DNA from: Comamonadaceae bacterium
GTDB taxonomy: Bacteria > Pseudomonadota > Gammaproteobacteria > Burkholderiales > Burkholderiaceae_C
DNA: 64,000 nt
Direction: 5' to 3'
NCBI GenBank assembly: GCA_013297875.1
Contig: JAAFIW010000003.1
Coordinates: 186,001-250,000, forward strand
Below are positions 3,058-26,772 of the stretch, piece by piece. Each line of letters begins with the position of its first letter. The stretch's first letter is position 1. The position numbers and the translations under genes were made by a program. A model generated the notes under the pieces. The model made no database searches and was not told the origin of the DNA. It saw only the letters and a list, made by a program, of their open reading frames with translations.

Positions 3058-3159
3058 TCCAAGTTTGCGGTGAACAGGTCACTTTGCGTCTTACGGCTCG
3101 CTGAATGCGTTTTCGGGACTCCATCGCTATCGGTTTATGTCATTTTGAGGAGTCCCTTC
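3058..3159 (+). promoter_or_regulatory. Conserved 5' leader of second RRM gene with SD-sequestering stem
   Basis: GGGACTCC (3115-3122) is perfectly complementary to GGAGTCCC (3149-3156), which contains the end of the ribosome site GAGGAG (3147-3152) before the ATG at 3160. Upstream blocks TTTGCGGTGAA and GCGTCTT match the leader of paralogue 1. Where the two leaders differ (GGGACTCC against GGGCTCC), pairing is kept through a G-U pair, which suggests selection for structure. Confidence 0.55.
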
Positions 3160-6015: not shown

Positions 6016-7002
6016 TTAAATCACCTTGGCACGCAGCAAATCGTGGGTGTTGATGGCACCGCACAGCAGACCTTGTGCATCGACCACCAGCAAGCGGGTG
6101 ATGCCGTGCAATTCCATGAGCTGCGCCGCATCCACCGCCAGCGCGTCGTCGCGCACAGTGCGGGGGTTGCGACACATCACCTGCTCCGCAGTGATAGCGC
6201 GCAGATCCAGACCTTTTTCAACCAGTCGGCGCAGGTCACCGTCTGTGAAGATGCCCAGCAAGCGACCCGCTTCGTCAGCAACCGCCGAAGCGCCCAGTCC
6301 CTTGGCGCTCATCTCGCGCATTAACTGGCTGAAACTGGCCCCCGGCAGCACGCGGGGCACGGCGTCGCCGGCACGCATCAGGTCGCGCACATGGGTAAGC
6401 AGCTTGCGGCCCAACGCGCCACCGGGGTGGGAGCGCGCAAAGTCCTGCTCGCCAAAACCGCGTGCGTCCAGCAAGGCCACGGCCAGCGCGTCGCCCAGGG
6501 CCATTTGTGCGGTGGTGCTGGCGGTGGGTGCCAGGCTCAAGGGGCAGGCTTCTTTTTCCACGCCACTGTCCAGCACCACATCGGCCTGGCTGGCCAAGGT
6601 GGACTTCAGCCCTCCCGTCATGGCAATCAGTTTTACACCCAGGCGCTTGATGGCGGGCAGCAGAGCGGTCAGCTCATCGACTTCGCCGCTATTGGAAACA
6701 GCCAGCACCAGGTCGTCGCCCGTCACCATGCCCAGGTCGCCGTGGCTGGCCTCGGCCGGGTGCACAAACAGCGCCGGCGTCCCGGTGGAGGCCAGCGTGG
6801 CAGCAATTTTGCGGCCTACATGGCCGCTTTTGCCCATGCCCATCACGGCCACGCGGCCACGCTTGGCCTGCAGCTGCAGAATGATCTCCACCGCCCTTGC
6901 AAACGCATCGCCGGTACGCGCCTTCAGCCCTAAAACGGCGGCCGCTTCAATGTCAAAGGTTTGGTGGGCCAGGCGCAGGGCCTGTTGGGGATCGAAAGGC
7001 AT
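6016..7002 (-). CDS. kdsD: Arabinose-5-phosphate isomerase KdsD
   Basis: The protein has 328 residues. A SIS sugar-isomerase domain (residues about 35-175, with MGMGKSGHVGRKIAATLAS and EASHGDLGM) is followed by two CBS domains (about 205-328). It converts ribulose-5-phosphate to arabinose-5-phosphate, the first step to KDO for LPS. It is the first gene of the kdsD-kdsC-lptC run and is divergent from a CPA2 antiporter gene; the 135-bp gap holds a long inverted repeat. Confidence 0.95.
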   Translation of the reverse strand: MPFDPQQALRLAHQTFDIEAAAVLGLKARTGDAFARAVEIILQLQAKRGRVAVMGMGKSGHVGRKIAATLASTGTPALFVHPAEASHGDLGMVTGDDLVLAVSNSGEVDELTALLPAIKRLGVKLIAMTGGLKSTLASQADVVLDSGVEKEACPLSLAPTASTTAQMALGDALAVALLDARGFGEQDFARSHPGGALGRKLLTHVRDLMRAGDAVPRVLPGASFSQLMREMSAKGLGASAVADEAGRLLGIFTDGDLRRLVEKGLDLRAITAEQVMCRNPRTVRDDALAVDAAQLMELHGITRLLVVDAQGLLCGAINTHDLLRAKVI

Positions 7003-7046
7003 GCGGGCATTCTAAGGATGACCAGATGACCGCTGCCTGCGGCGAG

Positions 7047-7112
7047 CGATGACAGATGAGTGGACTGTCTCCACGCAGGCCGCCTGCAAAGCAGCCGGGT
7101 CATCTGTCATCG
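7047..7112. promoter_or_regulatory. Long inverted repeat between kdsD and the antiporter
   Basis: CGATGACAGATGA (7047-7059) and TCATCTGTCATCG (7100-7112) are perfect 13-bp arms. The 40-bp interior contains smaller hairpins (GTGGA-CTGTC-TCCAC and GCAGGC-C-GCCTGC). A related direct copy (GATGACCAGATGACC) lies just upstream. It could be a cruciform, a regulator site shared by the divergent genes, or a leader RNA structure. Confidence 0.6.
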
Positions 7113-7137
7113 GCCTGAGAGTTGCTAGCATCGCCCC

Positions 7138-9120: not shown

Positions 9121-9132
9121 CAGCTCAATCGG

Positions 9133-9176
9133 CCAGCCGCCCTTGTATTTATTGCTCAAGCAGCTATAGATTTAGG
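9133..9176 (-). repeat. R1 repeat, intergenic
   Basis: It reads TATTTATTGCTCAAGCAGC then TATAGATTT, an R1 copy in reverse orientation with a decayed ATGGGCT end (GCCCTTG). It lies between the antiporter and the SPFH gene. Confidence 0.65.
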
Positions 9177-9302
9177 AGTATTCAGGGCAAACAGGCAGTT
9201 GAACGCAAAGCAAAGCCAAAACACGCAAGAAACGCACTTGCCACGCCACAAGCCGCGGGTATCATTCTTTTTCGTTAACTTTTCCACCACCTGGAGGTTG
9301 CT

Positions 9303-10346
9303 ATGGGCCTGATGGACTTCATCAAGAAACAGTTTATTGACGTTATTCAATGGACCGAGGAGGGTGACGGCGTGCTGGCCTGGCGCTTTCCGATGTCGGG
9401 CATGGAGATTCAAAACGGTGGCACGCTCACCGTGCGCGAATCGCAGGTGGCGGTTTTCGTCAACGAAGGCAAGGTGGCCGACGTGTTTGGCCCCGGCATG
9501 CACAAGCTGACCACGCAGACCCTGCCGGTGCTGACCTATCTGAAAAACTGGGACAAGCTGTTTGAGTCCCCGTTCAAAAGCGATGTGTATTTTTTCAGCA
9601 CACGCCAGCAGGTCGATCAGCGCTGGGGCACCTCGCAGCCCATCACCATTCGCGACAAAGACTTTGGCATGGTGCGCCTGCGTGCCTTTGGCAACTACAG
9701 CTTCCGCATTGCCGACCCCAAGCTGTTTCACACCGAAATTTCGGGCACGCGTGAGACTTACACCGCTGCTGATCTGGACGGCCAGCTGCGCGGCCTGGTG
9801 CTGCAACACCTGTCGGACGCGATTGCTAAAAGCGGCATTCCCTTCCTGGATCTGGCGGCCAACCAGCTGGAATTTGCCAAGGCCCTTTCCACCGAGCTGA
9901 CCCCCGCGTTTGAAAAAATCGGCCTGAAGGTCGAGGGCATGACGGTGCAAAACGTCTCGCTGCCCGAAGAGCTGCAAAAAATCCTCGACCAGAAGATTGG
10001 TATGGGCATGATCGGCAACGACATGGGCAAATTCATGCAGTACCAGACCGGCCAGGCCATTCCCGGCATGGTCAATTCCGGTGGTGGCGGCAGCGGCATT
10101 GCTGGAGACGCGATGGGATTAGGAGCAGGTGTGGCCTTGGGCCAGGTGCTGGCGCAAAACCTGGCGCAGGGCTTGAGTGGTGCCAACCAGCCTGCCGCAG
10201 TTCAAGCCGTGGCTGCACCCGCTGCTGCCAGTGCAGACGACATCATGGCCATGCTGGAAAAGCTGGGTGACCTGAAGACCAAAGGCATCCTGACGCAGGA
10301 AGAATTTGACGGGAAGAAGGCGGAGTTGTTGAAGAAATTGGTCTGA
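9303..10346 (+). CDS. SPFH domain protein with C-terminal SHOCT-like module
   Basis: The protein has 347 residues. An SPFH/band-7-like domain fills residues about 1-240 (ESQVAVFVNEGKVADVFGPG near the start), followed by a Gly-rich linker and a C-terminal helical hairpin (LEKLGDLKTKGILTQEEF) typical of SHOCT-like oligomerisation modules. It resembles the YdjI/virion-core-like SPFH group. A strong GGAGG lies 6 nt before the ATG. It heads a same-strand set with DUF4178, DUF350 and aminopropyltransferase genes, a combination linked by comparative genomics to membrane stress. The function is not established. Confidence 0.88.
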   Translation: MGLMDFIKKQFIDVIQWTEEGDGVLAWRFPMSGMEIQNGGTLTVRESQVAVFVNEGKVADVFGPGMHKLTTQTLPVLTYLKNWDKLFESPFKSDVYFFSTRQQVDQRWGTSQPITIRDKDFGMVRLRAFGNYSFRIADPKLFHTEISGTRETYTAADLDGQLRGLVLQHLSDAIAKSGIPFLDLAANQLEFAKALSTELTPAFEKIGLKVEGMTVQNVSLPEELQKILDQKIGMGMIGNDMGKFMQYQTGQAIPGMVNSGGGGSGIAGDAMGLGAGVALGQVLAQNLAQGLSGANQPAAVQAVAAPAAASADDIMAMLEKLGDLKTKGILTQEEFDGKKAELLKKLV

Positions 10347-10365
10347 ACGTACGGGAGCGGGTACC

Positions 10366-10495
10366 GGACGCGAAGGACGCGAAAGCGCGCGAAGGACGCG
10401 AAATGAAGACAAAAACAATGAGGAGTATCCAAATGCATTCGTCCAAATTTGGTTTTCTTTTGCGTCCTTCGCGCACCTTCGCGACCTTCGCGTCC
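10366..10495 (+). repeat. R2 hairpin repeat, copy a
   Basis: GGACGCGAAGGACGCGAAAG and a further GAAGGACGCGAAA unit on the left are complementary to GCGTCCTTCGCGCACC and CTTCGCGTCC on the right, giving a roughly 130-bp imperfect hairpin with a central AT-rich loop. Related copies lie at 12316 and 26876. It separates the SPFH and DUF4178 genes. Confidence 0.85.
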
Positions 10496-10531
10496 TATCC
10501 CCGGTTTTTAAGCCTCAGCTAAGCACAAGCC

Positions 10532-12028
10532 GTGGCCCAACCAACCCCCCAACGCGCTTACCGGGCACCGTGCCCCGGTTGCGGTGCGCCGGTTGATTTT
10601 TTAAGTGCCCAATCGACCCACGCGGTCTGCGGCTATTGCAGCAGCACGGTGGTGCGCGATGGCGAGAAGCTCTCGCGTATCGGCAAGATGGCCGAGCTGT
10701 TTGATGACCACAGCCCGCTGCAACTGCAAACCCGCGGTACCTACGACAAAGTAGGTTTTGTGTTGGTGGGGCGGTTGCAATACCGCTCGGGCAGCGGCAC
10801 CTGGACCGAGTGGAACGCGTTTTTTGACGATGGCCGCACCGGCACCCTGGGTGAAGACAACGGCTCTTACGTTTTCTGCTTTCCCTCCAGCGCACAGCGC
10901 GAGGTGCCCCCGGCCGACCGCTTTCGCGTGGGTGCCACCACCGCGATTGGCGGCAAGCCCTTCAGCGTAGCGGCCAGCGAGCAGGTGGCGCTGATTTCGG
11001 CGCAGGGCGAGCTGCCCAAGTTGCCGCCGCTGGGGCAGACCTTTGCGATGGTGGAGCTGCGTAGTGCCGAGGGCGAGGTCATCAGCATCGACTACTTCGC
11101 CACACCGCCGTTGCTGTCGCGTGGCGTGGCGGTGTTGCTGGAAGGTTTGAACCTGTCGGGCCTGCGCGAGGACAACGTCAAGGACGAAAAAGGGCGGCAC
11201 TTTGAATGCCCCAACTGCGGCGCGCCGGTTGAAGTGCATCTGGCCAACAGCAAAAGCATCACCTGCCGCTCCTGCAACAGCCTGATTGACCTGAGCAAAG
11301 GCATCGGCAGCGAGCTGTCGCATGCGGTTCAAGACGAGCCGGTGCAATTGCTCATTCCGTTGGGTGCCACCGGCCAGTTGCAGGGCGTGCACTGGCAGGT
11401 GGTGGGTTTCCAGCACCGCATGGGCCGCGACCCGCAAGACGACGAGGAAGAGCATTTCGGTTGGAACGAATACCTGCTGTTCAACCAGAAACGCGGCTTT
11501 GTGTTTTTGGTCGACTCCGAAGACGGTTGGAGCGTGGTCAAACCGACCACCGGCGCGCCCACGATGACCGGCAACGGCCAGAGCGCCTCCTACCTGGGCA
11601 CCAGCTACAAGCTGCTTTACAGCTACAACGCCGAAACCACCTACGTGGCGGGCGAGTTTTACTGGCCGGTGGTGCGTGGCCAGAAAACCAGCAACCGCGA
11701 CTTTGGCAGCGGCACCAGCCTGCTGTCCATGGAGCAGACGCCCACCGAGTTGACCTGGTCCAGTGGTAGCAAAATCGACAGTGCGGCGGTGGCCAAAGCC
11801 TTCAAGATAGAAGACAAAAAAGAGCTATTCAAGCGCGCCGACGCCGCGCCCACGGCAAGCAAAGGCATGGGCTGCATCACCATCATTGTGGTGTTTGTGA
11901 TTATTCTGATTTTGCTGTCGCTGATGCGCAGCTGCAGTTGCGATCCGCAACGCGAGAACTGCAGCAGTTCCAACCGCAGTTCGGGCGGCTCGTATGGCGG
12001 TTTTTCTGGTGGTGGCGGGCACAAATGA
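10532..12028 (+). CDS. DUF4178 domain protein with two zinc ribbons
   Basis: The protein has 498 residues and starts at a GTG just before an N-terminal zinc ribbon (CPGCGAPVDF with a later CGYC). A second ribbon occurs around residue 225 (CPNCGAPVEV, CRSC). Two DUF4178-like beta-rich modules follow the ribbons (about 60-200 and 265-420). A membrane segment near residues 450-470 (ITIIVVFVIILILLSLM) leads into a Cys-, Ser- and Gly-rich tail. DUF4178 genes commonly sit beside DUF350, SPFH and aminopropyltransferase genes, as here. Its biochemical role is unknown. Confidence 0.88.
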   Translation: MAQPTPQRAYRAPCPGCGAPVDFLSAQSTHAVCGYCSSTVVRDGEKLSRIGKMAELFDDHSPLQLQTRGTYDKVGFVLVGRLQYRSGSGTWTEWNAFFDDGRTGTLGEDNGSYVFCFPSSAQREVPPADRFRVGATTAIGGKPFSVAASEQVALISAQGELPKLPPLGQTFAMVELRSAEGEVISIDYFATPPLLSRGVAVLLEGLNLSGLREDNVKDEKGRHFECPNCGAPVEVHLANSKSITCRSCNSLIDLSKGIGSELSHAVQDEPVQLLIPLGATGQLQGVHWQVVGFQHRMGRDPQDDEEEHFGWNEYLLFNQKRGFVFLVDSEDGWSVVKPTTGAPTMTGNGQSASYLGTSYKLLYSYNAETTYVAGEFYWPVVRGQKTSNRDFGSGTSLLSMEQTPTELTWSSGSKIDSAAVAKAFKIEDKKELFKRADAAPTASKGMGCITIIVVFVIILILLSLMRSCSCDPQRENCSSSNRSSGGSYGGFSGGGGHK

Positions 12029-12072
12029 TGTGCTTGTGCCGGTCTTCAACGTATTTGTGAAGGAAAAGCGAG

Positions 12073-12291
12073 ATGACATTTGAATGGCTCAAACCCGTGG
12101 CTGTTTTTGGTTCGGTGATCTACGCGCTGATCGGCGTGATCATCTTCTGGCTCAGCTTCATCATCATCGACAAAATCACGCCCTACAACCTGTGGGAAGA
12201 GATCGTCGAAAAACAAAACATGGCGCTGGGCATGGTGGTGGCAGCGATGTGCCTGGGCATCAGCGTGATCGTGGCAGCCGCGATTCATTGA
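12073..12291 (+). CDS. DUF350 small membrane protein
   Basis: The protein has 72 residues with two membrane segments (about residues 8-32 and 50-72) joined by a short loop (DKITPYNLWEEIVEKQN). It is a single DUF350 repeat; YjfL-type relatives carry several. An AAGGA element precedes the ATG. It is 44 bp downstream of the DUF4178 gene and probably acts with it at the membrane; the role is unknown. Confidence 0.85.
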   Translation: MTFEWLKPVAVFGSVIYALIGVIIFWLSFIIIDKITPYNLWEEIVEKQNMALGMVVAAMCLGISVIVAAAIH

Positions 12292-12315
12292 TTTCCTGCT
12301 GCAGCAGTCGGGTCT

Positions 12316-12434
12316 AAGGACGCAGAGGTCGCGAAGGATTCGCGAAGGACGCGAAAGAACGGCCAAAATAAATCTGTCATTTTGGTTTCTTTTTCGCGTC
12401 CTTCGCGTAGTTTTCGCGACCTCTGCGTCTTTGC
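12316..12434 (+). repeat. R2 hairpin repeat, copy b
   Basis: AAGGACGCAGAGGTCGCGAA (left) is nearly perfectly complementary to TTCGCGACCTCTGCGTCTT (right). After it comes CGAATTCAATCCC and then the start codon of the next gene, the same 3' flank as at copy c. Confidence 0.85.
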
Positions 12435-12452
12435 CTTCGAATTCAATCCCGC

Positions 12453-13997
12453 GTGACATCTTCCAAATCCCCCCTTGAAGTCGCCCTGCTGGCCAGCGTC
12501 TTCGTGGTCGCTGCCTGCGGCCTGGTTTACGAGTTGGCGGCGGCGGCGCTGGCTTCGTATGTGCTGGGTGATTCGGTGTTGCAGTTCTCCACCATCATCG
12601 GCACCTACCTGTTTGCCATGGGCATTGGCTCGTACCTGTCGCGCTTCTTCGAGCGGCAGCTGCCAGCCCACTTTTTACGCATAGAACTGCTGGTAGCCCT
12701 TATAGGTGGTGCTCTGCCAGCTATTCTTTTTATAGTGAATGCCGTCGCGCCCGGCAGCTTTCGGTTGATGTTGTACGCACTGGTGGTACTGGTGGGCACC
12801 TTGGTGGGGCTGGAGATTCCGCTGGTCATGCGCATCTTGAAGCGGCACGCCGCCTTGAAAGAACTGGTCTCGCAGGTACTCACCTTTGACTACCTGGGCG
12901 CGTTGGCCGTGTCGGTGGCGTTTCCGCTGCTGCTGGTGCCGCAACTGGGCCTGGTGCGCACCGGCCTGCTGTTTGGCCTGATGAACGCCGCGGTCGCGGT
13001 GTGGGCGCTGTGGCTGTTTCGCGATGAGTTGCGGCAATTTTGGGCCCACGCTGCGGCCTGCGTGCTCACCCTGGCGGCGCTGGGCGCGGGCTTTGCCGGG
13101 GCCGACCACATCACCACCCTGGCCGAAGACAAGCTCTACCAGGACCGCGTGATTTTTGCCACCACTTCGCCCTACCAGCGCATTGTGGTCACGCATTCAG
13201 CCGGTGCCACCAATGCAGGCACGCGCCACGGCCACCGCCTGTTTTTGAACGGCAACCTACAGTTTTCCGAAAAAGACGAGTACCGCTACCACGAGGCTCT
13301 GGTACACCCCGCGATGGCCGCGCACGGCGGTGCGCGCAAGGTGGCCGTGCTGGGTGGCGGCGACGGCATGGCCGTGCGCGAGGTGCTGCGCTACCCGCAA
13401 GTGGAAAGCGTGACCCTGGTGGAGCTGGACCCGGCCATGACGCGCCTGTTTTCCACGCAACCCGCCTTGGTCAAACTCAACGGCGGCGCGCTGCAGTCGC
13501 CCAAGCTCCAGGTGGTGAACACCGACGCCTTCAAGTGGCTGGAAGATACGCGGGAACAGTTCGACGTGATCGTGGTCGACTTCCCTGACCCCACCAATTT
13601 TTCGATCGGCAAGCTCTACACCACCTCGTTTTACGCCCTGCTGGAGCAACGTCTCTCGGCTAGCGGCTATGCCACCATCCAGACCACCTCGCCCCTGGTC
13701 GCCCGCGAGAGCTTCTGGACGGTGGCCACCACCCTGGAAGCCGTGGGCCTGCGCACCGCGCCGTACCACGCTAATGTGCCCAGCTTCGGCGAATGGGGCT
13801 TCATCATCGCCAGCCGCAGGCCGTTTGCGTTGCCGCAAAAACCCGAGCAACTGCCCCCGGGCTTGCGGTTTTTAACCGTGCCCACCCTGGCCCTGATGTT
13901 CGACTTCCCCGCCGACATGGCCCGCGTGCCCGCGCAAGTGAACCGCCTGAGCAACCAGAGCCTGGTGACGACGTATGAGCGGGAATGGGGCAAGTAG
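12453..13997 (+). CDS. Membrane-anchored polyamine aminopropyltransferase (spermidine synthase-like)
   Basis: The protein has 514 residues. It starts at a GTG 19 nt after repeat R2b; no ATG lies before the first membrane helix. About seven membrane segments fill residues 8-220, followed by a spermidine-synthase fold with the SAM-type glycine motif LGGGDGMAVREVLRYP and acidic VTLVELDPAM. Family members transfer an aminopropyl group from decarboxylated SAM to a polyamine or a related acceptor. Linkage with DUF350/DUF4178/SPFH genes suggests a membrane-related polyamine modification. No SAM decarboxylase gene is next to it. Confidence 0.9.
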   Translation: MTSSKSPLEVALLASVFVVAACGLVYELAAAALASYVLGDSVLQFSTIIGTYLFAMGIGSYLSRFFERQLPAHFLRIELLVALIGGALPAILFIVNAVAPGSFRLMLYALVVLVGTLVGLEIPLVMRILKRHAALKELVSQVLTFDYLGALAVSVAFPLLLVPQLGLVRTGLLFGLMNAAVAVWALWLFRDELRQFWAHAAACVLTLAALGAGFAGADHITTLAEDKLYQDRVIFATTSPYQRIVVTHSAGATNAGTRHGHRLFLNGNLQFSEKDEYRYHEALVHPAMAAHGGARKVAVLGGGDGMAVREVLRYPQVESVTLVELDPAMTRLFSTQPALVKLNGGALQSPKLQVVNTDAFKWLEDTREQFDVIVVDFPDPTNFSIGKLYTTSFYALLEQRLSASGYATIQTTSPLVARESFWTVATTLEAVGLRTAPYHANVPSFGEWGFIIASRRPFALPQKPEQLPPGLRFLTVPTLALMFDFPADMARVPAQVNRLSNQSLVTTYEREWGK

Positions 13998-14132: not shown

Positions 14133-14765
14133 TCACGTCGGCATCAACTTATTAATCTCCTCCTGCATCGCCTGTGTCAGCTGCGCGTACATCTTCAATT
14201 TGTCGCTGGAGTCGCGCATGCGTTGGGCCAGACGCAGGCTGATGGCCATCATCAGTTTGGCGGCGGTGCGGGGGTCGTCGTCTAGCAGCTGGTTCAGTTC
14301 GGTGCGGGTCAACACAGCGCAACGCACGGTGGTCAGCGCGGTGCAGGAGGCGCTGCGGGGTTCGCCATCGACCAGGCCCATCTCGCCAATCAGGTTGCCT
14401 GCGCCCAGCACGGTGACCGTGATGGGCTCGACGCGGCTGACCACGATGGACTCGATCGTCACGTCGCCGTCGAGCACCAGCAGCATGAAGTCGGTTTCCT
14501 TGCGGTCACCCTGGCGGATGAAGGTGGTGCCGGCTTCAATCTTTTTGGGCTGCATGTAGCTGACCACCATACGAGCTTCGTCGTGCGTCAGCTGCATCAG
14601 GGCGCTAGGGGCGCACAGCATGCGGGCGGCCTGGTCTGCGCTGGCTGAGCCTTTGATGGCGGCCATGCGCTGGGCAGGCGTTTTGGCGGTCACGCCAGCG
14701 AAGGTGTCGCTGTGCCGCTCAATCGGTACGGCAATGAATGGTTCGGGATCGGTTGGCTTCGTCAT
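14133..14765 (-). CDS. Cyclic nucleotide-binding domain protein
   Basis: The protein has 210 residues. A CRP/FNR-type cNMP-binding beta-barrel covers residues about 65-175, with the phosphate-binding cassette-like segment GNLIGEMGLVDGEPRSAS. No helix-turn-helix domain follows; the C-terminal helices (QRMRDSSDKLKMYAQLTQAM) look like a short coiled coil. So it is a stand-alone nucleotide sensor or regulatory subunit rather than a transcription factor. It is divergent from metH, which may be chance. Confidence 0.88.
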   Translation of the reverse strand: MTKPTDPEPFIAVPIERHSDTFAGVTAKTPAQRMAAIKGSASADQAARMLCAPSALMQLTHDEARMVVSYMQPKKIEAGTTFIRQGDRKETDFMLLVLDGDVTIESIVVSRVEPITVTVLGAGNLIGEMGLVDGEPRSASCTALTTVRCAVLTRTELNQLLDDDPRTAAKLMMAISLRLAQRMRDSSDKLKMYAQLTQAMQEEINKLMPT

Positions 14766-17903: not shown

Positions 17904-18503
17904 ATGAATACCACCCGTCTACTGGCTCTGTCCTTGGCACTGGCTGCCGCAAGCTCCGCTGCCCTGGCCCAAACCACGGTCATCACCACCACCCCGGCAC
18001 CGGCACCCATTCCCGCACCCGCGCCAGCGCCTGCTCCAGCGCCTGCCGTGGTTGTGCCCGCACCTGCACCCGTGGTGATCGTGCCCGCCCCACAGCCCGT
18101 GCCGCCACCTGCGGCAGTCGTCCCTGCACCGGCGCCCGTTCCGGTGGCTGTTGCAGCCCCCGTGGTGGTGTGCGATTTGTGTGGCACGGTCACCGAATTG
18201 AAAACCGAAGAGCGCAAAGGCAAGGGCGGCGCGGCCGGTATCGTCGGGGGTGCCCTGGTGGGCGGCTTGCTGGGTAACCAGATTGGCAAGGGCGATGGCA
18301 ACAAAGTGGCCACCGTCGGCGGCGCGGTCGGTGGAGCCGTCGTAGGCAACGAGATTCAAAAGAATGTGACGGGCAAGAAAGTCTGGCTGTCCAGCGTGAA
18401 AATGAAAGACGGCAGCGTCAAAACCGTGGAACAAGACGCGCAACCTGCATGGGTGGTCGGCGATGTGGTCAAGATTGACGGCAACTCCGTCAGCAAGCAG
18501 TAA
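17904..18503 (+). CDS. Glycine-zipper (17 kDa antigen/SlyB-like) surface protein
   Basis: The protein has 199 residues: a signal peptide (residues 1-22, ending ALAQ), a Pro/Ala/Val-rich linker (about 28-92), a short segment with CDLCG, and a glycine-zipper 2TM domain (about 110-155, GIVGGALVGGLLGNQIG). A small beta domain ends the protein (VWLSSVKMKDGSVKTVEQD). Unlike SlyB/Pal relatives it has no lipobox cysteine after the signal peptide, so it is probably periplasmic or membrane-inserted. GGAGG lies before the ATG. Function unknown beyond envelope association. Confidence 0.85.
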   Translation: MNTTRLLALSLALAAASSAALAQTTVITTTPAPAPIPAPAPAPAPAPAVVVPAPAPVVIVPAPQPVPPPAAVVPAPAPVPVAVAAPVVVCDLCGTVTELKTEERKGKGGAAGIVGGALVGGLLGNQIGKGDGNKVATVGGAVGGAVVGNEIQKNVTGKKVWLSSVKMKDGSVKTVEQDAQPAWVVGDVVKIDGNSVSKQ

Positions 18504-18507
18504 ACCG

Positions 18508-18573
18508 GCGTTTTTAAGCCAAATCGGGCAGCAGCCCATTCAAATACTGCTCAAACAGCTATCTATTTGATAG
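18508..18573 (-). repeat. R1 repeat, long intergenic copy
   Basis: It extends from GCGTTTTTAAGCCAAATCGG through AGCAGCCCATT to TACTGCTCAAACAGC and TATCTATTTGATAG. It defines the longer form of R1 (about 65 bp) and abuts a terminator. Confidence 0.8.
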
Positions 18574-18602
18574 TAAAAAAGGACTCCTCGGAGTCCTTTT
18601 TT
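18574..18602. terminator. Bidirectional rho-independent terminator
   Basis: AAAAAAGGACTCC-TC-GGAGTCCTTTTTT is symmetric, with A and T tracts on either side. It serves both the glycine-zipper gene and the convergent Roadblock/GTPase operon. Confidence 0.92.
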
Positions 18603-18623
18603 ACGTTGATGCGAGGGGAAAAA

Positions 18624-18983
18624 TCAGACCGCCAGGTCTTTCTCCACGTCTTGCACCTTGCGGCGCGCCATGGCCAGGTTGCTCTTGGCTTTGTCCAGCA
18701 CGATGTAGATGAACAAGCCTTCTTTGCGTGCCATCGGGCGAATGATGTGGTATTGCTTACCCAGCGTGATCAGAATGTCTTCGATCACGTCGTTCAGGCC
18801 CAGCGCGCGCATGGTTTTCATTTTTGCGCGTACCACTTCGGTGTTGCCCGCAGCCGCGACTTCCATGTCGACACCTGAGCCGATCTGGCCCAGGATCATG
18901 CCGCTGGACGAATCCACCAGCATGGCGCACATGGCGCCGTCCAGCGTGAGCAGCTCCTGCATGGATTGGTTAATGGTTGCCAC
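18624..18983 (-). CDS. Roadblock/LC7 domain protein (third of the operon)
   Basis: The protein has 119 residues. The start is taken as a GTG because AAGGAG lies 7 nt before it and the Roadblock fold begins directly after (ATINQSMQELL); an ATG further up lacks a ribosome site. The domain segment AMLVDSSSGMILGQIG is typical of Roadblock/LC7 proteins, which dimerise and act as GTPase activators or scaffolds for small Ras-like GTPases (as MglB does for MglA). It lies 92 bp after the previous gene of the GTPase operon and ends at the shared terminator, so it is probably the last gene of that operon. Confidence 0.85.
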   Translation of the reverse strand: MATINQSMQELLTLDGAMCAMLVDSSSGMILGQIGSGVDMEVAAAGNTEVVRAKMKTMRALGLNDVIEDILITLGKQYHIIRPMARKEGLFIYIVLDKAKSNLAMARRKVQDVEKDLAV

Positions 18984-19075
18984 GAATCTTCTCCTTGAAT
19001 CGTCACCGTTTACAGATTCCAGTAGCTGTCGCGGCGACATATTCGGCTGCTGCTGGTTGAGGAACTACATACTAG

Positions 19076-19465
19076 CTAGCTTGCAATAACCTTTTGTAAC
19101 GATTCCGTTTCAATCAGGGCTTTGCGAAGTGCCAACACCTGCATGCCCCAATCAGCCCACGCCACACCAGACTTGGCCGCCACGCATATCAACACCCGCG
19201 CAGGTGCATCACCGCAAGGAAACAGCGCCACCACGTGGTCTGCAAAAGAATAGGCCGCCGATTTGAGGCCACCCAAGCTGACCAGCTGCACCGACAGGCG
19301 CTGGTGCACCCGCCAGAACTCCACCGCTGCCTCGCCAATGTGTTCAATATCGGGCAACTGGCCCGCGTGGTGCCAGACCATGCCGCTTTCGGCCTCCACC
19401 AGCGCGCAGCCCTGCACGCCGGGAAACCGGGCCAGTTTTTCAAGATGGGCAGCAATCAAAGGCAT
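19076..19465 (-). CDS. Roadblock-like protein (second of the operon)
   Basis: The protein has 129 residues. Its pattern (LARFPGVQGCALVEAESGMVW, then a VVALFPCGDAPARVLICVA strand pair) suggests a diverged Roadblock/LC7-type fold. The ATG overlaps the stop of the preceding Roadblock gene by one base (TGATG). It is probably a partner or regulator of the MglA-like GTPase encoded two genes upstream. The fold assignment is by pattern and context only. Confidence 0.7.
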   Translation of the reverse strand: MPLIAAHLEKLARFPGVQGCALVEAESGMVWHHAGQLPDIEHIGEAAVEFWRVHQRLSVQLVSLGGLKSAAYSFADHVVALFPCGDAPARVLICVAAKSGVAWADWGMQVLALRKALIETESLQKVIAS

Positions 19466-19854
19466 CAGGCTTGCTCCAGCGCGCGAGCGGCTTTTTTGGC
19501 GTAGTAAATGGCCTGCCCCATGATGGCGTCGCGCCCCGTCACCACGCTCAAGATCAGCGACACATCGGCCCGGCGGGCTTGCAGCATCACGATGTGGCCT
19601 TCCCTGGCCTCTATCACCAAGCTGTCGCACGCCCCCAGGTTGCTTTCTTCGCCAGCAATCGCACCCAAGGCCGCCAGCGAGCTGGCCATCGCCGACAAAC
19701 GGGCCACCTGGGCGGTGTTTTCGGTGCGGGCGGCGACCTCAAAGCCGTCTTCGGTGGAGATCACCACAGCTTTTGCGCCCTTGATGTCGTCCATCACGGT
19801 TTGCACCGCGGCGTCAGCGGCGCGCTGCAAGTTGAAATCAATCTTGGTCGTCAT
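19465..19854 (-). CDS. Roadblock/LC7 domain protein (first of the operon)
   Basis: The protein has 129 residues with a clear Roadblock/LC7 core: AVVISTEDGFEVAART, then ARLSAMASSLAALGAIAGEE and ILSVVTGRDAIMGQAIYYAK. This is the form paired with MglA-like GTPases and with the CvnB/CvnD pair of actinobacterial conservons. It starts 2 bp after the GTPase stop codon, so the two are translated together. Confidence 0.9.
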   Translation of the reverse strand: MTTKIDFNLQRAADAAVQTVMDDIKGAKAVVISTEDGFEVAARTENTAQVARLSAMASSLAALGAIAGEESNLGACDSLVIEAREGHIVMLQARRADVSLILSVVTGRDAIMGQAIYYAKKAARALEQA

Positions 19855-19856
19855 GG

Positions 19857-20393
19857 CTAATCGTTTTCCGTTTTGCTTTCCAGCTGCAACAGCAGCAATT
19901 CCAGAATTTGCACCACCTGCTCACGCTCGCGTACATCGGCGGGCAGCACCGGGCACAGTACACCACGTGATTCCAGGTGCGCCACAAACTTCTCGATGCC
20001 AGGCTGCGGGTGCGTCTCCAGCCGACCCACCGCCACCACGCAGGCGGTGTCTTCTATCAGCTTGGCAAAGCCTTTCAAGTAGCGGTCCAGATCGTCCAGC
20101 GGGTCGCTCCGGCTGTTGTCGATCAGGATGATCAGGCCCAGCGCACCATTGCTCAAAATCTTCCACATGAAGTCAAACCGCTGCTGGCCCGGCGTGCCAT
20201 ACAGGCGCAGCTTTTCGCCGTTGTCCAGTGTCAGCTCGCCATAGTCCATGCCCACCGTGGTCATGGCCTTGGACAGGTTGACGTCGGTGTTGCGCACGTC
20301 GGTGGACAGCGGCGGAATCTCGCTGACCGCGCCAATGGCAGTGGTTTTGCCAGCACCGGTGACGCCGGTGAAAAGAATTTTGTGTTCGATCAC
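19857..20393 (-). CDS. MglA-like small Ras-superfamily GTPase
   Basis: The protein has 178 residues. The P-loop GVTGAGKTT is at residues 10-18, switch II has TPGQQRF (67-73) with Gln where Ras has the catalytic residue, and the base-recognition motif NKxD is replaced by VGRLE (about 122-126), a known deviation in the ARF-like/conservon GTPase group. It cycles between GTP and GDP states and is expected to be controlled by the Roadblock proteins encoded downstream. The gene overlaps the upstream unknown gene by 4 bp. Confidence 0.9.
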   Translation of the reverse strand: MIEHKILFTGVTGAGKTTAIGAVSEIPPLSTDVRNTDVNLSKAMTTVGMDYGELTLDNGEKLRLYGTPGQQRFDFMWKILSNGALGLIILIDNSRSDPLDDLDRYLKGFAKLIEDTACVVAVGRLETHPQPGIEKFVAHLESRGVLCPVLPADVREREQVVQILELLLLQLESKTEND

Positions 20394-21082
20394 GATTTAC
20401 CCAGAGTGAACAGACTCAGCCGGTTGCGAATGCGCGATAGCAAGCCCGTGGGTGCCACGGCTGGGGTGTCCGGTTTTTCCATGGCGGGTGCGGCGCTGGC
20501 AGCGGCGGGCACCGCCGCCCCAGCCAGCAGACCGGCGCGAAGCAGCTCGTTCAAAAAAGCGCCGCATTCGGCCTCTGGCTGGCCGGAGCGACGGTGCAGC
20601 TGGTTCAGTGTCAGTGGTTTGCCGGTCAGCAAGGTGGCCAGCCGCATGCGCTGGGGCGTGGCCACCAGGTCGGCGGGCGGCCAGCGCAGCAGGCGGGCCG
20701 GTGCCTCAGCGTTCCAGTTCACACCGTTTTCAGCCCCTGCAGGGCGCGCTTCAACGATCAGCGCACCCAGACGGTCGAGCTCGTGCTGCAGTTCATCGGC
20801 CCGCAGCGGCATGCACAGGTAGCCGGGGCGCGGGTTGGGCAAGCTGCCCAGCACCAGGGCTTGCTGCTGCTGGCCGCTATTAGCCACCAGGTTTTTCGAC
20901 AGCACGCCCTCGGCCACCATGCGCAAATCAGCGGGTTGGGCCTGGTACAGCCACTCATGCGCGGTGCGGTGTTTGAGCAGGCGCACAAAGCTCTTGACCA
21001 GCAGCTCGTCGCGCGCAGGCAGCCCCTCCACGCTAAACGTCAACACGGCGGCCCGAGCGGGCCTGTTGAGCACCTCGGTCAT
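20390..21082 (-). CDS. Unknown protein of the LOV-GTPase operon, possible C-terminal winged helix
   Basis: The protein has 230 residues and was not recognised as a known family. The N-terminal part (about 10-130) looks alpha/beta. Residues about 140-190 (RMRLATLLTGKPLTLNQLH, then ECGAFLNELLRAGLL) have the spacing of a winged helix-turn-helix. An Ala/Pro-rich linker and a basic C-terminus (GLLSRIRNRLSLFTLGKS) follow. In position it matches DUF742/CvnC of conservons, which is also winged-helix-like, but homology is not shown. It overlaps both neighbours by 4 bp (ATGA), so it is coupled to the photoreceptor and the GTPase. Confidence 0.7.
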   Translation of the reverse strand: MTEVLNRPARAAVLTFSVEGLPARDELLVKSFVRLLKHRTAHEWLYQAQPADLRMVAEGVLSKNLVANSGQQQQALVLGSLPNPRPGYLCMPLRADELQHELDRLGALIVEARPAGAENGVNWNAEAPARLLRWPPADLVATPQRMRLATLLTGKPLTLNQLHRRSGQPEAECGAFLNELLRAGLLAGAAVPAAASAAPAMEKPDTPAVAPTGLLSRIRNRLSLFTLGKS

Positions 21083-21852
21083 GGCGCTCTATCCAACGCT
21101 GCCGCGCTGCCACGCGGGTGCTGCACACCCACAAAATGCGTCACCACACCGGCCGCGTCTCGCACCGGGGAGACGAACAACTCATTTAAAAACATGCTGC
21201 CGTCTTTGCGGTAGTTGCGCAGGATGGCGTGGCCATTGGTTTCGTCGTGGATGGCTTGGCGAATGGTGTCCAGCGCCGGTTGGTGCCGGTCTGTGCCCTG
21301 CAAAAACCGGCAGTTCCGGCCCATGATTTCGGCTGCGGAGTAGCCACTCATGCGCTCAAACATGGGGTTGACGTAGATGATGGGCATGTCAGGGGCGCGT
21401 GCGTCGGAGATCACCACGCCTGCATTCAGTGCCTCCCATTGGCGCTTCATGAAATCCAGGGCTTGTTGGGCTTGCAGCGTGGCGGTGATATTGTTGATGG
21501 CTATCACCTTGAAGCGTTCACCCGCCGGGTTTTTTACACCGCGCGTTTTCAGCAGCAAGTGCACCGCGCCCTCGGCACCTGCGCGCCGGACGGTGCGCTC
21601 GCCGTCCTGTCCGGGCGAACCCAACCATTGCGCCAGGGTCACGTCAGCATCGATTTTTTCCGTCAGGCGGGTCACCGGCATGTTCAGCACGTTCAGGGCC
21701 TCAATGTTCATCATGCGGGCACCGGCTGCGTTGAGCATGACCACGCGGGCCGTGTCGTCCAGCACGCAAATGCCCACATCGGCTTCGTCCAGCCAGGTGG
21801 ACAGCAGGGTTTGCTCAAACAGGTCGTTGGCGCGGGGCGTAGGGTGTGACAT
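21079..21852 (-). CDS. PAS-LOV blue-light photoreceptor protein
   Basis: The protein has 257 residues. A PAS domain (about 15-125) is followed by a LOV domain (about 138-247) carrying the flavin-adduct motif GRNCRFLQG with C181, and the FMN-binding residues R182, Q185, N213 (in NYRKDG), N223 and Q244 (FVGVQ). These mark a photoactive LOV domain. No kinase, cyclase or DNA-binding output domain is present; the chain ends about 10 residues after LOV. The output is therefore probably by contact with the next gene products: it is the first gene of a coupled operon with an MglA-like GTPase and Roadblock proteins. The ATG at 21852 was chosen; longer frames add unrelated residues. Confidence 0.92.
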   Translation of the reverse strand: MSHPTPRANDLFEQTLLSTWLDEADVGICVLDDTARVVMLNAAGARMMNIEALNVLNMPVTRLTEKIDADVTLAQWLGSPGQDGERTVRRAGAEGAVHLLLKTRGVKNPAGERFKVIAINNITATLQAQQALDFMKRQWEALNAGVVISDARAPDMPIIYVNPMFERMSGYSAAEIMGRNCRFLQGTDRHQPALDTIRQAIHDETNGHAILRNYRKDGSMFLNELFVSPVRDAAGVVTHFVGVQHPRGSAAALDRAP

Positions 21853-22028
21853 AGATGAGCGAAATGGGGTTGGGCATCCATTCTTGCACCACCGCGCCCG
21901 CTTTGGGTGCATCGCCAGGTGCGATGGGTCGTCTGTACGACATGGGTGCAACAGCTTTGTTAATTTCTATCTGGTTTGGTGTGTGTTCAAGCCTTTTGGG
22001 CTCAACGTGAAGGTTCGGAGAGCACGAG

Positions 22029-22050
22029 TAGCTATTTATTCGATAGCAAA
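22029..22050. repeat. R1 half-copy at the 3' end of comM
   Basis: TAGCTATTTATTCGATAGC is the palindromic end of R1 without the ATGGGCT arm. It lies 4 bp from the comM stop codon, between comM and the LOV operon start. Confidence 0.5.
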
Positions 22051-22053
22051 AAA

Positions 22054-23583
22054 TCAGCCGAGCATCTTCAACGCCCGCCGGTACTGCACGGCTTCGGCCA
22101 CATGGGTGACTTGCGTGTGCTGGGCACCGGCCAGGTCGGCAATCGTGCGGGCCACCTTCAAGGCGCGGTGGGTGCTGCGGGCGCTCCAGCCCAAGCGGGC
22201 GGCAGCGGTGTTCAGAAACTTGCCAGCGGGCGGATCCAGCAGTACATACAGATCAATTTCTTTGCCCTGCAACGCCTGGTTGGCCTTGCCCTGGCGTGCC
22301 ACCGAGCGCTCGCGGGCTGCGGCGCAGCGCGCGCGGATGCTGGCGGTGGTCTCGCCTGAAGGTGCACCCAGCAATTCGTCGGGCGAAATGGCGGGCACTT
22401 CAATGTGTAAATCCAGCCGGTCCAGCAGCGGGCCGCTGATGCGACCCTGGTAGCGCGAGACCTGGTCGGGCGTGCAGCGGCAGGCTTTGAGCGTGGAGCC
22501 GAGATACCCGCAAGGGCAGGGGTTCATGGCGGCTATCAGCTGAAAGCGCGCCGGAAACTCCGCCTGCCGCGCAGCGCGCGAGATGCGGATGTGGCCCGTT
22601 TCCAGCGGCTCGCGCAGCGCCTCCAGCGCGGCGCGGGGAAACTCGGGCAGTTCATCCAGAAACAGCACACCCTCGTGCGCCAGCGAAATTTCGCCTGGCT
22701 TGGGCGGCGAACCACCCCCCACCAGGGCCACCGCGCTGGCGGTGTGGTGAGGGGCCAGGGTTGGCCGCTGGCCAAACTGCTCCAGCCGGAAGCGCCCGGC
22801 CAGGCTGGCCACCGCCGCGCTTTCCAGCGCCTGCGTGGTGGTCATGGTGGGCAGCAGCCCGGCAAAGCGCTGGGCCAACATCGACTTGCCCGAACCCGGC
22901 GGCCCCACCAGCAGCAGGCTGTGGCCACCGGCTGCTGCAATTTCCAGCGCACGTTTGGGGCCCGCCTGGCCTTTCACGTCGGCCAGGTCGGCATAGGTGG
23001 CTTGGGCTGCAAATGGCACGGGCTGCACGCGGGCCCAGCCGGTGGCTTGCGGGTTGTCGGGTGCTTTTGGTAAAAACTGCTGCACCACATCCAGCAAATG
23101 CGCCGCGCGAAAAACCAGGGTATCGGGCACCAGTGCGGCCTCTTCGGCGCTGCCGGGCGGCAGCACCAGGGTGGACTGAGCCGCTTGCGCGTGCAGCGCC
23201 AGGCTCATGGCCAGCGCACCGCGGACCGGCCGCAACTCACCCGACAGCGACAACTCGCCGGCAAACTCGTGGCCGGCCAGCTTGTTGCCATCAATCTGCC
23301 CACTGGCCGCCAGAATGCCCAGCGCAATTGGCAAATCAAACCGGCCCGAGTCTTTGGGCAGGTCGGCCGGGGCCAGGTTCACGGTGATGCGCTTGTTGCT
23401 GGGAAACTCCAGCCCACTGTTTTGCAAGGCCGAGCGCACCCGCTCCCGCGCCTCTTTCACCTCGGTTTCGGCCAGACCGACCAAGGTGAAACTGGGTAGG
23501 CCATTGGCCAGATGCACCTCGACGGTGACTTGAGCGGCCGTCAAACCCACCAGCGCCCGGCTGCGCACCAAAGACAAGCTCAT
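22054..23583 (-). CDS. comM: ComM/YifB family Mg-chelatase-like AAA+ ATPase
   Basis: The protein has 509 residues, the normal length. An N-terminal ChlI/Lon-like domain (MSLSLVRSRALVGLTAAQV) is followed by an AAA+ module with Walker A GPPGSGKSML and Walker B-type VLFLDELPEF, and a C-terminal Mg-chelatase domain with a zinc-like cluster (CPCGYLG). ComM is a hexameric helicase that drives branch migration during natural transformation, so the host may be or have been competent. The ATG at 23583 fits the family N-terminus. Confidence 0.94.
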   Translation of the reverse strand: MSLSLVRSRALVGLTAAQVTVEVHLANGLPSFTLVGLAETEVKEARERVRSALQNSGLEFPSNKRITVNLAPADLPKDSGRFDLPIALGILAASGQIDGNKLAGHEFAGELSLSGELRPVRGALAMSLALHAQAAQSTLVLPPGSAEEAALVPDTLVFRAAHLLDVVQQFLPKAPDNPQATGWARVQPVPFAAQATYADLADVKGQAGPKRALEIAAAGGHSLLLVGPPGSGKSMLAQRFAGLLPTMTTTQALESAAVASLAGRFRLEQFGQRPTLAPHHTASAVALVGGGSPPKPGEISLAHEGVLFLDELPEFPRAALEALREPLETGHIRISRAARQAEFPARFQLIAAMNPCPCGYLGSTLKACRCTPDQVSRYQGRISGPLLDRLDLHIEVPAISPDELLGAPSGETTASIRARCAAARERSVARQGKANQALQGKEIDLYVLLDPPAGKFLNTAAARLGWSARSTHRALKVARTIADLAGAQHTQVTHVAEAVQYRRALKMLG

Positions 23584-24954: not shown

Positions 24955-26772
24955 ATGAAAAAACTACTTTCCCTGCTGGTGCTGGCGGTCAGCTTGTTCG
25001 CAGGCTGGGCGCATGCCGCCGAGTTCCCCACCGTCAACGTGATGTTTGAAACCGGCAAGAACACGCTGGCCAAAGACGCAGATGCGACGATCAAGATTGC
25101 GGCTGATTTCCTGAAAGCCAACCCGGCCGAGAAGCTCACGCTCTCTGGTTTTGTGGACGGCACGGGTGATCCGGCAGCCAACAAAGAAATTGCCAAGAAG
25201 CGCGCCTTTGCGGTGCGCGATGCCTTGGTGGCAGCCGGTGCATCAGCTGACAGCGTGATGCTGCAAAAGCCGGACGACATCAACGCAGGCAAGGGCGAAG
25301 AAGCCCGTCGCGTTGATATTTCGCTGTTCAAACCGGTTGCTGCGCCGGCCGCTGCCGCAGCACCTGCGGCTGCTCCCGCTGCAACGGCTGCTGCAGCCCC
25401 TGCCGCACCCGCTTCAGCGCCCGCAGCCCCAGCCCCCGTACCCAACAAAGGCGACACCGCCTGGATGATGGTGGCTACCCTGCTGGTGATCTTGATGACC
25501 TTGCCGGGCCTGGCCCTGTTCTATGGCGGCTTGGTGCGCAGCAAAAACATGCTGTCGGTGCTCATGCAGGTGATGGTCACTTTCAGCCTGATCGTGGTGC
25601 TGTGGGTGATCTATGGCTACAGCTTTGCATTCACCGAAGGCAACCAGTTCATTGGCGGCACAGACCGGCTGTTCCTCAAAGGTATTTGGGATAACGTGGG
25701 TGGCACGTTTGCCAATGCAGCCACCTTCAGCAAGGGCGTGGTCATTCCTGAAATCGTGTTCGCTGCCTTCCAGGCCACGTTTGCCGGCATCACCTGCTGC
25801 CTGATCGTGGGCGCGTTTGCCGAGCGCATCAAGTTCAGCGCCGTGCTGGCCTTTATGGTGCTGTGGTTCACTTTCGCCTACCTGCCGATTGCCCACATGG
25901 TGTGGTTCTGGATGGGCCCTGACGCCTACACCGCCAAAGAAGTCGCCGATGCGATGAACGCCAAGGCCGGCATGATCTGGCAGTGGGGCGCGCTGGACTT
26001 TGCAGGCGGCACCGTGGTGCACATCAACGCCGGCGTGGCTGGATTGGTCGGCGCTTATGTGATTGGCAAACGCATTGGTTACGGCAAAGAGTCCATGACC
26101 CCGCACAGCCTGACCCTGACCATGGTGGGCGCTGCCTTGCTGTGGGTGGGCTGGTTTGGTTTTAACGCCGGCTCGGCTCTGGAAGCCAACGGTTTTGCCG
26201 CATTGGCCTTCATCAACACCTTTGCGGCAACCGCTGCGGCGGTGCTGGCTTGGTGCATTGGCGAGGCGCTGGCCAAAGGCAAGGCTTCGATGCTGGGCGC
26301 TGCCTCTGGTGCCGTAGCTGGTTTGGTCGCTATCACCCCAGCGGCTGGCAACGTCGGCCCCGGCGGTGCCCTGATCATTGGCCTGCTGGCTGGCTTTGTC
26401 TGCTTGTGGGGTGTCAATGGCCTGAAACGCATGCTGGGTGCCGACGACTCGCTGGACGTGTTTGGCGTGCACGGCATCGGCGGTATTTTGGGTGCCCTGC
26501 TGACCGGTGTGTTCGCATCGCCCAGCCTGGGTGGCCCCAGCGCCATGGGCGACTGGGTCACGGCCACCATGATCAAGCCCGAGGACTACAGCATTGCAGG
26601 CCAGGTGTGGATTCAGGCCAAAGCGGTGCTGGTCACCGTGGTCTGGTCAGCAGTCGTCTCACTCATCGCCTTCAAGCTGGTTGATCTGGTGATCGGTCTG
26701 CGTGTGAGCGAAGAAGAAGAGCGCGAAGGCCTGGATATTTCCAGCCACGGCGAAACGGCCTACCACCGTTGA
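24955..26772 (+). CDS. amtB: Ammonium transporter AmtB with N-terminal OmpA-like domain
   Basis: The protein has 605 residues, about 180 more than usual. After a signal peptide (1-22) comes an OmpA-like domain (about 23-128; NVMFETGKNTL, NKEIAKKRAFAVRDAL, EEARRVDISL). An Ala/Pro-rich linker of about 40 residues leads into an 11-helix ammonium channel starting near residue 165 (WMMVATLLVILMTLPGLALF). The pore histidine pair is present (GGTVVHINAG and GVHGIGG). The Amt N-terminus faces the periplasm, so the OmpA-like part would reach peptidoglycan. It is co-transcribed with glnK. The channel call is certain; the role of the extra domain is not. Confidence 0.95.
   Translation: MKKLLSLLVLAVSLFAGWAHAAEFPTVNVMFETGKNTLAKDADATIKIAADFLKANPAEKLTLSGFVDGTGDPAANKEIAKKRAFAVRDALVAAGASADSVMLQKPDDINAGKGEEARRVDISLFKPVAAPAAAAAPAAAPAATAAAAPAAPASAPAAPAPVPNKGDTAWMMVATLLVILMTLPGLALFYGGLVRSKNMLSVLMQVMVTFSLIVVLWVIYGYSFAFTEGNQFIGGTDRLFLKGIWDNVGGTFANAATFSKGVVIPEIVFAAFQATFAGITCCLIVGAFAERIKFSAVLAFMVLWFTFAYLPIAHMVWFWMGPDAYTAKEVADAMNAKAGMIWQWGALDFAGGTVVHINAGVAGLVGAYVIGKRIGYGKESMTPHSLTLTMVGAALLWVGWFGFNAGSALEANGFAALAFINTFAATAAAVLAWCIGEALAKGKASMLGAASGAVAGLVAITPAAGNVGPGGALIIGLLAGFVCLWGVNGLKRMLGADDSLDVFGVHGIGGILGALLTGVFASPSLGGPSAMGDWVTATMIKPEDYSIAGQVWIQAKAVLVTVVWSAVVSLIAFKLVDLVIGLRVSEEEEREGLDISSHGETAYHR

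What the first reader, a model, noticed from the sequence alone, without database searches (positions are those of the whole stretch)
18624..21852. PAS-LOV photoreceptor in a coupled operon with an MglA-like GTPase and three Roadblock-type proteins: a possible light-gated conservon-like switch
The first gene has an intact LOV adduct motif (C181 in NCRFLQG, plus N213, N223 and Q244) and no output domain. It overlaps by 4 bp an unknown protein with a winged-helix-like segment, which overlaps an MglA-like GTPase by 4 bp, followed at once by Roadblock proteins. In actinobacterial conservons a sensor kinase, a Roadblock protein, a DUF742 winged-helix protein and a GTPase are encoded together; here the kinase is replaced by a blue-light sensor. 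Light could control a GTPase switch for polarity, motility or gene expression. I know of no described system with this composition.
Basis: partly seen in the sequence, partly recalled or inferred. Interest (0 to 1): 0.88.

Follow-up and report, generated by a model that had tools for sequence, protein, structure and literature searches.

The report
Blue-light sensor wired to bacterial G-protein
A blue-light sensing protein is encoded in one operon with a small Ras-like switch protein and its partners, in two genera of bacteria, which suggests a natural light-controlled GTPase whose partner system is known but whose light input is not.

Summary
A stand-alone PAS-LOV protein (21079-21852, -) with the full photoactive motif overlaps by 4 bp a protein B, which overlaps an MglA-like GTPase, followed by three Roadblock-type genes and a terminator-like hairpin. 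The five genes after LOV are not new in kind: their composition is that of 'Group 3 MglA systems' (Wuichet & Sogaard-Andersen 2014). Protein B is a pseudo-receiver plus winged helix, not a demonstrable DUF742 (conservon) protein. New is the input. A 47%-identical PAS-LOV gene ends 17 bp before the same five genes in another genus (G594), behind a different upstream gene, so the coupling is conserved; no LOV motif occurs in the other 113 GTPase loci opened. These two are also the only upstream genes within 100 bp of B among 25 same-strand cases. In a second type of such operons a short PAS-only protein sits beside the Roadblock gene (16 of 40), so a small PAS-type partner is a recurring part. 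Most likely mechanism (inferred): lit LOV binds B or a Roadblock regulator and changes the GTPase state, to control type IV pili (PilT present, no flagellin found) or transcription. Flavin photochemistry and any light effect are untested. New variant of a known kind.

The parts
21079..21852 (-). PAS-LOV protein, 257 aa; weakly PAS-like N-terminal region, LOV domain about aa 134-246 with adduct cysteine C181; no output domain
   Evidence: ortholog L153:5207-6058 (47% identity over 243 columns)
20390..21082 (-). Protein B, 230 aa: pseudo-receiver (about aa 12-112), winged helix (about aa 129-187), conserved basic C-terminal helix (about aa 213-225)
   Evidence: AlphaFold2 model pLDDT 83.9, pTM 0.65; receiver domains Z 10-11; SmtB winged helix E 4e-5; column counts
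19857..20393 (-). MglA-like small GTPase, 178 aa, GTG start; GVTGAGKT P-loop, GTPGQ, no [NT]KxD at G4, DVR at G5
19465..19854 (-). R1, MglB-type Roadblock protein, 129 aa
19076..19465 (-). R2, divergent Roadblock-like protein, 129 aa; membership weaker
18624..18983 (-). R3, Roadblock-fold protein, 119 aa, mean column identity 67% over 32 rows
   Evidence: (pLDDT 89.7)
18573..18604 (-). Terminator-like hairpin (14 bp stem ending in a U run) after R3; symmetrical, so it may serve both strands
   Evidence: -20.4 kcal/mol, z -7.8

Best explanation
A light-input version of a Group 3 MglA G-protein module. Shown by sequence and structure comparison: a LOV protein with the canonical photochemical residues, co-encoded with a GTPase, Roadblock (MglB-type) regulators and a pseudo-receiver/winged-helix protein. 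Inferred: blue light makes the C181-flavin adduct; the lit PAS-LOV protein changes its contacts with protein B (its overlapping neighbour gene) or with a Roadblock protein; as B lacks the phospho-aspartate and LOV lacks a kinase, the signal passes by protein-protein contact rather than phosphotransfer; this shifts GTP/GDP exchange or hydrolysis of the GTPase, in whose control the Roadblock proteins act as GAP/GEF; the GTPase, with B, acts on type IV pili/polarity or on transcription.
For: Canonical LOV residues. PAS-LOV ortholog 17 bp before the same five genes in another genus, behind a different upstream gene (a short-chain dehydrogenase instead of YifB). In 63 loci of this operon type, 25 with a detected B have a same-strand gene within 500 bp upstream of it; only the two LOV genes lie within 100 bp (-4 and 17 bp; the others 134-482 bp). 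Of 56 PAS-LOV/LOV matches listed in 399 family genomes (E<=1e-30) only these two lie in open frames under 500 aa. A second type of operon has a PAS-only protein beside the Roadblock gene in 16 of 40 loci; a Thermus MglA operon has a protoglobin protein. B as query in 100 family genomes: 9 of 10 places lie next to a GTPase match. Phospho-acceptor position of B is Ala in the window and Asp in 10 of 32 rows. Precedents: GAF protein CvnF8 binds and stimulates its kinase in a conservon (PMC13343842, abstract); a short LOV protein binds an adjacently encoded regulator when lit (PMC9758184, abstract). Own genome: PilT family over its cut-off at 3 of 7 places, no flagellin; in Snodgrassella an orphan Group 3 mglB mutation goes with altered spreading that its authors ascribe to type IV pili (PMC11112851, passages).
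Against: No experiment. Only 2 of 63 loci of this operon type carry LOV, so the core works without light. The two LOV loci are not shown to be sisters, so the coupling was gained twice, transferred, or lost repeatedly. Pfam found no sensor domain in 18 other upstream genes: this operon type does not generally have a sensor in front. No evidence which core protein LOV touches; the output is guessed from relatives.
Confidence: 0.6

Rival explanations
1. LOV regulates protein B as a light-responsive DNA-binding protein, as in PmSB-LOV/PmlR2; the GTPase and Roadblock proteins are a parallel or downstream branch and light acts on transcription only.
For: LOV and B overlap by 4 bp; B has a winged helix related to SmtB/ArsR; precedent PMC9758184 (abstract); transcription was proposed as Group 3 output in PMC4316618 (section 18).
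Against: B goes with the GTPase: 9 of 10 places found with B as query lie next to a GTPase match; DNA binding of B is untested.
Confidence: 0.2
2. The LOV domain works as a redox or flavin-status sensor rather than a light sensor; the relevant signal is not light.
For: The second operon type uses PAS-only proteins whose sequence resembles the FAD/redox PAS of Aer (resemblance recalled, not tested by a call).
Against: The adduct cysteine and the other LOV signature residues are kept in both orthologs at 47% overall identity.
Confidence: 0.08
3. Operon neighbours only: the LOV gene shares a transcript with the module but acts elsewhere.
For: LOV is absent from 113 of 115 opened GTPase loci.
Against: Same arrangement in a second genus behind another upstream gene, tighter than any other upstream gene seen; no other short-frame PAS-LOV in the list.
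Confidence: 0.1

Closest known systems
Group 3 MglA systems (Wuichet & Sogaard-Andersen 2014, PMC4316618)
   Same: MglA-family GTPase, protein with receiver-like N-half and winged-helix C-half, MglB proteins; G4 deviates from [NT]KxD, Arg in G5
   Different: Here three Roadblock-type genes, and a LOV photoreceptor gene overlapping the module; the paper's main text holds neither 'LOV' nor 'PAS'
Actinobacterial conservons / AGPS (Cvn systems), including the GAF protein CvnF8
   Same: Sensor, Roadblock protein, winged-helix protein and MglA-family GTPase in one operon; in some a stand-alone sensory accessory protein
   Different: No CvnA kinase, no DUF742 match, GTPase outside the CvnD clade; light input
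Short LOV proteins (PmSB-LOV with PmlR2, PMC9758184)
   Same: LOV protein without output domain next to its presumed partner gene
   Different: Additional N-terminal region; neighbours are a GTPase module
M. xanthus MglA/MglB polarity switch
   Same: Related GTPase (E 1e-4 at best in the PDB profile search, below Rab proteins) and Roadblock regulator fold
   Different: Input there is the Frz chemosensory system; no photoreceptor

Membership tests
Group 3 MglA system | Adjacent conserved protein with receiver-like N-terminal and winged-helix C-terminal regions | tested here: met
   VIA-align receiver domains Z 10-11 over aa 11-116; Foldseek alone had no match at E<=0.001, best NarL 2.5e-3; winged helix by profile and model
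Group 3 MglA system | MglA homolog with one or two MglB homologs next to it | tested here: met
   R1 and R3 (and probably R2) beside the GTPase
Group 3 MglA system | G4 deviating from [NT]KxD and Arg-bearing G5 (DAR type) | tested here: met
   VGRLETH and DVR; R155 invariant in 9 of 9 aligned. Five of nine rows of the other operon type do have TKxD
Group 3 MglA system | GTPase falls in one clade with Group 3 reference sequences | tested here: inconclusive
   Apart from CvnD (100/100) and Thermus/Deinococcus (96/100); joining with the other operon type unresolved, and no named reference sequence of the paper was in the tree
Group 3 MglA system | Beta/gamma-proteobacterial host | not tested
Conservon (Group 2 / AGPS) | CvnA histidine-kinase-like sensor | tested here: not met
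   LOV protein has only PAS-family domains
Conservon (Group 2 / AGPS) | CvnC protein with DUF742 | tested here: inconclusive
   No DUF742 match in Pfam for B (E<=1, 32 rows, E<=0.01); hhalign 42% over 43 columns
Conservon (Group 2 / AGPS) | GTPase in the CvnD clade | tested here: not met
   (four CvnD rows)
LOV photoreceptor | Adduct cysteine and conserved Asn/Asn/Gln/Arg in a LOV-type PAS domain | tested here: met
LOV photoreceptor | Flavin binding and blue-light photocycle | not testable with these tools
   needs purified protein
Roadblock/LC7 (R1) | Pfam Robl_LC7 / MglB profile | tested here: met
   24 of 24 rows at E<=0.01 (window copy under the curated cut-off); CvnB profile 98%
Roadblock/LC7 (R2) | Pfam Robl_LC7 / MglB profile | tested here: inconclusive
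   6 of 20 rows; CvnB profile 5%
Roadblock/LC7 (R3) | Roadblock fold | tested here: met
   97 Foldseek matches at E<=0.001; the 50 listed are MglB, MglC, Ragulator/MP1-p14 and Roadblock chains; no sequence match

The most novel reading that the evidence does not exclude
A natural light-gated bacterial Ras-like GTPase; and, more widely, MglA modules of this kind as G-protein cores into which small stand-alone sensors (LOV here, PAS-only proteins in the other operon type, protoglobin in Thermus) are plugged.
Probability: 0.5. Interest if true: 0.88.

Novelty: new variant of a known kind. Interest (0 to 1): 0.74.

Why it matters
In the papers I saw, Group 3 MglA systems have no known input signal, and the only phenotype is colonisation and spreading in Snodgrassella, although they occur in Neisseria, Stenotrophomonas and Xanthomonas (PMC4316618). 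A LOV input would give a stimulus that can be switched on and off quickly, so that the path from sensor to GTPase, still hypothetical for conservons too (PMC8510531, passages), becomes directly testable. It would also be a natural, compact light-controlled small G protein of use to optogenetics.

Tried and rejected
Conservon membership: tested with four Streptomycetaceae cvn loci by tree, Pfam and profile comparison; not supported.

Sensor exchange within the window's own operon type: L033 has a PAS histidine kinase 186 bp and L154 a GAF-PAS-GGDEF-EAL protein 185 bp upstream of B. I first took these as swapped inputs. The later check shows that genes at such distances (134-482 bp) are mostly unrelated (isocitrate dehydrogenase, DnaB, ABC transporters, LysR, transposase and others), so these two may be chance neighbours; they are not counted as evidence.

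Search of named genomes with protein B: one weak hit (41% over residues 78-136, Acrocarpospora), not used. This spent the only genome-contig scan, so no organism names are attached to the relatives.

Plasmid collection with LOV and GTPase as queries: the neighbourhoods of the LOV hits were not opened, so LOV next to MglA in those records is not tested.

LOV-GTPase pairs in other classes: 57 of 398 phylum genomes match at E<=1e-15; 20 further stretches opened, none with the LOV motif.

Single origin of the LOV coupling: not shown; LOV rows form one side of a branch in 22% of bootstrap trees, and a four-protein tree puts L153 at the base of an eight-locus clade (95 SH-aLRT / 76 bootstrap) away from the window, with a weak backbone.

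Promoter scan of 18450-22150: none found (0; shuffles 0.8). VIA-align covered aa 11-116 of B only.

Sampling limits: of the places other than the window, 15 of 15, 40 of 49 and 60 of 70 were opened; only 20. The first look scored at most 6-8 candidates per genome, so a LOV gene could be missed; LOV was recognised by a motif and a small profile. Gene calls in relatives come from my own codon-usage script, not from an annotation; B of L153 was below its score and was read from the open frame. Loci are not independent. The 63/40/12 split follows the rule (46 of the 63 have an R3 gene).
Full report
What is there. On the minus strand between 18573 and 21852 lie six genes in one direction: PAS-LOV, B, an MglA-like GTPase and three Roadblock-type genes R1, R2, R3. 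LOV/B and B/GTPase overlap by 4 bp, R1 follows after 2 bp, R1/R2 overlap by 1 bp, R3 follows after 92 bp. A 14-bp hairpin with a U run stands after R3. Upstream of LOV, 201 bp away on the same strand, is a YifB/ComM-type gene.

The LOV protein. Residues 137-245 match the YtvA family model (E 7e-36, not over its full-length cut-off) and LOV domains of solved photoreceptors (E about 1e-32). C181, R182, Q185, N213, N223 and Q244 are in place. The N-terminal part is PAS-like at best (PAS_7 E 0.017 in the window, 1.7e-4 in the ortholog, both under the cut-off). Pfam shows no kinase, cyclase or DNA-binding domain.

The core module is known. B, GTPase and Roadblock genes recur in the same order in relatives. 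This is the composition of Group 3 MglA systems, described from genome comparison in 2014 (PMC4316618; section 18 read whole, passages of other sections): a protein of unknown function with receiver-like and winged-helix halves, MglA, and one or two MglB, almost only in beta/gamma-proteobacteria. My tests agree: B's model is receiver-like over residues 11-116 (best Z 11.3; Foldseek alone had nothing at E<=0.001) and its second half has ArsR-type winged-helix similarity; the GTPase lacks [NT]KxD at G4 and keeps Arg in G5, though five of nine rows of the other operon type have TKxD. GTPase matches: 12 of 100 family genomes (E<=0.001) and, by profile, 50 of 399 family (E<=1e-20), 41 of 399 order (E<=1e-10) and 57 of 398 phylum genomes (E<=1e-15). 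The window's organism was not identified by any search.

Protein B is a pseudo-receiver. The position I read as phospho-acceptor (57) is Ala in the window and Asp in 10 of 32 rows; the position of the receiver Lys (91) is Met in the window, Arg in 17 and Leu in 8 of 32, before Pro92 (31 of 32); W134 is in 32 of 32; a C-terminal basic helix is conserved (R219 31 of 32, L222 30 of 32). The equation of these positions with receiver residues is my reading of alignment and model. A phosphorelay through B is therefore unlikely in this organism (inference).

Is the LOV coupling conserved? Of 116 stretches examined (window included), 115 hold the GTPase: 63 of the window's type, 40 of a second type with another Roadblock gene, 12 others, by the rule. 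The LOV motif occurs in 2: the window and L153, from a genome of another genus of the same family. In L153 a 283-aa PAS-LOV protein, 47% identical over 243 columns with the signature residues kept, ends 17 bp before B (258 aa, open, 33% identical to the window's B, with the conserved tail), followed by GTPase, R1, R2, R3. Its upstream gene is a short-chain dehydrogenase, not YifB. In 25 of the 63 loci a detected B has a same-strand gene within 500 bp upstream; only the two LOV genes lie within 100 bp. A search with the two PAS-LOV proteins in 399 family genomes lists 56 places at E<=1e-30 in 46 genomes; 54 lie in open frames of 500 aa or more, and the two in short frames are these. In the genus of L153, 1 of 3 genomes has the GTPase.

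Other inputs. In the second operon type, 16 of 40 loci have a PAS-only protein of about 158-166 aa directly beside the Roadblock gene, mostly with a phosphonate-binding-like protein (present in 22 of 40) (Pfam checked for L042 only); labels two more (L098, L179) that the rule did not count. A Thermus plasmid MglA operon has a protoglobin protein, and two of the four conservons opened have a GAF protein after the GTPase; for CvnF8 such a protein was shown to bind and stimulate its kinase (PMC13343842, abstract). Against a general rule for the window's own operon type: in 18 other upstream genes Pfam found no sensory domain at E<=1e-4, and the two that do have one (L033 kinase, L154 GGDEF-EAL) lie about 185 bp away, no nearer than unrelated genes; three of the 25 were not scanned (L084, L166, L171). 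L035 has a related PAS kinase with, by eye, a NarL-type regulator downstream of R3, and L113 a PAS-GAF-GGDEF-EAL gene 293 bp after R3.

How it most likely works. Light gives the flavin-cysteine adduct (established LOV chemistry; residues present). The lit protein changes contact with B or a Roadblock protein (inferred; precedent PmSB-LOV with PmlR2, PMC9758184, abstract). The GTP state changes (inferred from MglA/MglB, where MglB acts as GAP and GEF, PMC11016934 as seen in a search listing, and from Cvn models, PMC8510531, passages). Output: type IV pili are plausible because the genome has three PilT-family genes over the cut-off (7 matches in all) and no flagellin match, and because a Group 3 mglB mutation in Snodgrassella went with flares on soft agar (PMC11112851, passages); transcription through B's winged helix is the alternative that PMC4316618 proposed for Group 3.

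Evolution. In a GTPase tree the two LOV rows lie in one supported set of six with four rows lacking LOV (98/92) but form one side of a branch in only 22% of bootstrap trees; a four-protein tree puts L153 at the base of an eight-locus clade (95/76) with a weak backbone. Ancestral LOV with repeated loss, two gains, or transfer are all open.

Novelty. Full-text searches for LOV domain with roadblock, GTPase and MglA (no paper with all terms), LOV with small GTPase (54 papers, 20 listed), blue light with MglA and type IV pili (42 papers, 15 listed) and PAS with roadblock/MglB (2 papers) showed no title or abstract beginning that describes this pairing; apart from the papers named here the listed ones were not opened, and the library holds only open-licence papers. 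I file it as a new variant of a known kind: known core, new light input, conserved in two genera.

Change after checking. The claim that this operon type exchanges sensors in front of B was cut back; the odds of the bold reading are left at 0.5 because its statement was narrowed to small stand-alone sensors.

Noticed in passing
window 24955-26772 (+): An ammonium transporter (Ammonium_transp E 6e-118) carries an N-terminal OmpA-family domain (E 4e-11), which looks like an unusual fusion; the gene before it is by eye a PII protein.
   Followed up: partly
L034 (G098), 5959-12523: Two complete B-GTPase-R1-R2-R3 modules stand in tandem; the same genome holds a third (L033) with a PAS histidine kinase 186 bp upstream.
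   Followed up: partly
L042:3517-8702 and 15 similar loci: A second operon type pairs a PAS-only protein with a phosphonate-binding-like protein (PF12974 in L042), next to Roadblock, B-like and GTPase genes and two proteins without Pfam match.
   Followed up: partly
L257 (Thermus brockianus pTB1) 1483-3282: MglA-type GTPase followed by a stand-alone protoglobin protein and, one gene on, a Roadblock gene: a possible gas-sensing counterpart.
   Followed up: no
window 14133-14765 (-): Protein with a cyclic-nucleotide-binding domain (cNMP_binding E 3e-16) and no other domain found, about 4 kb from the operon.
   Followed up: no
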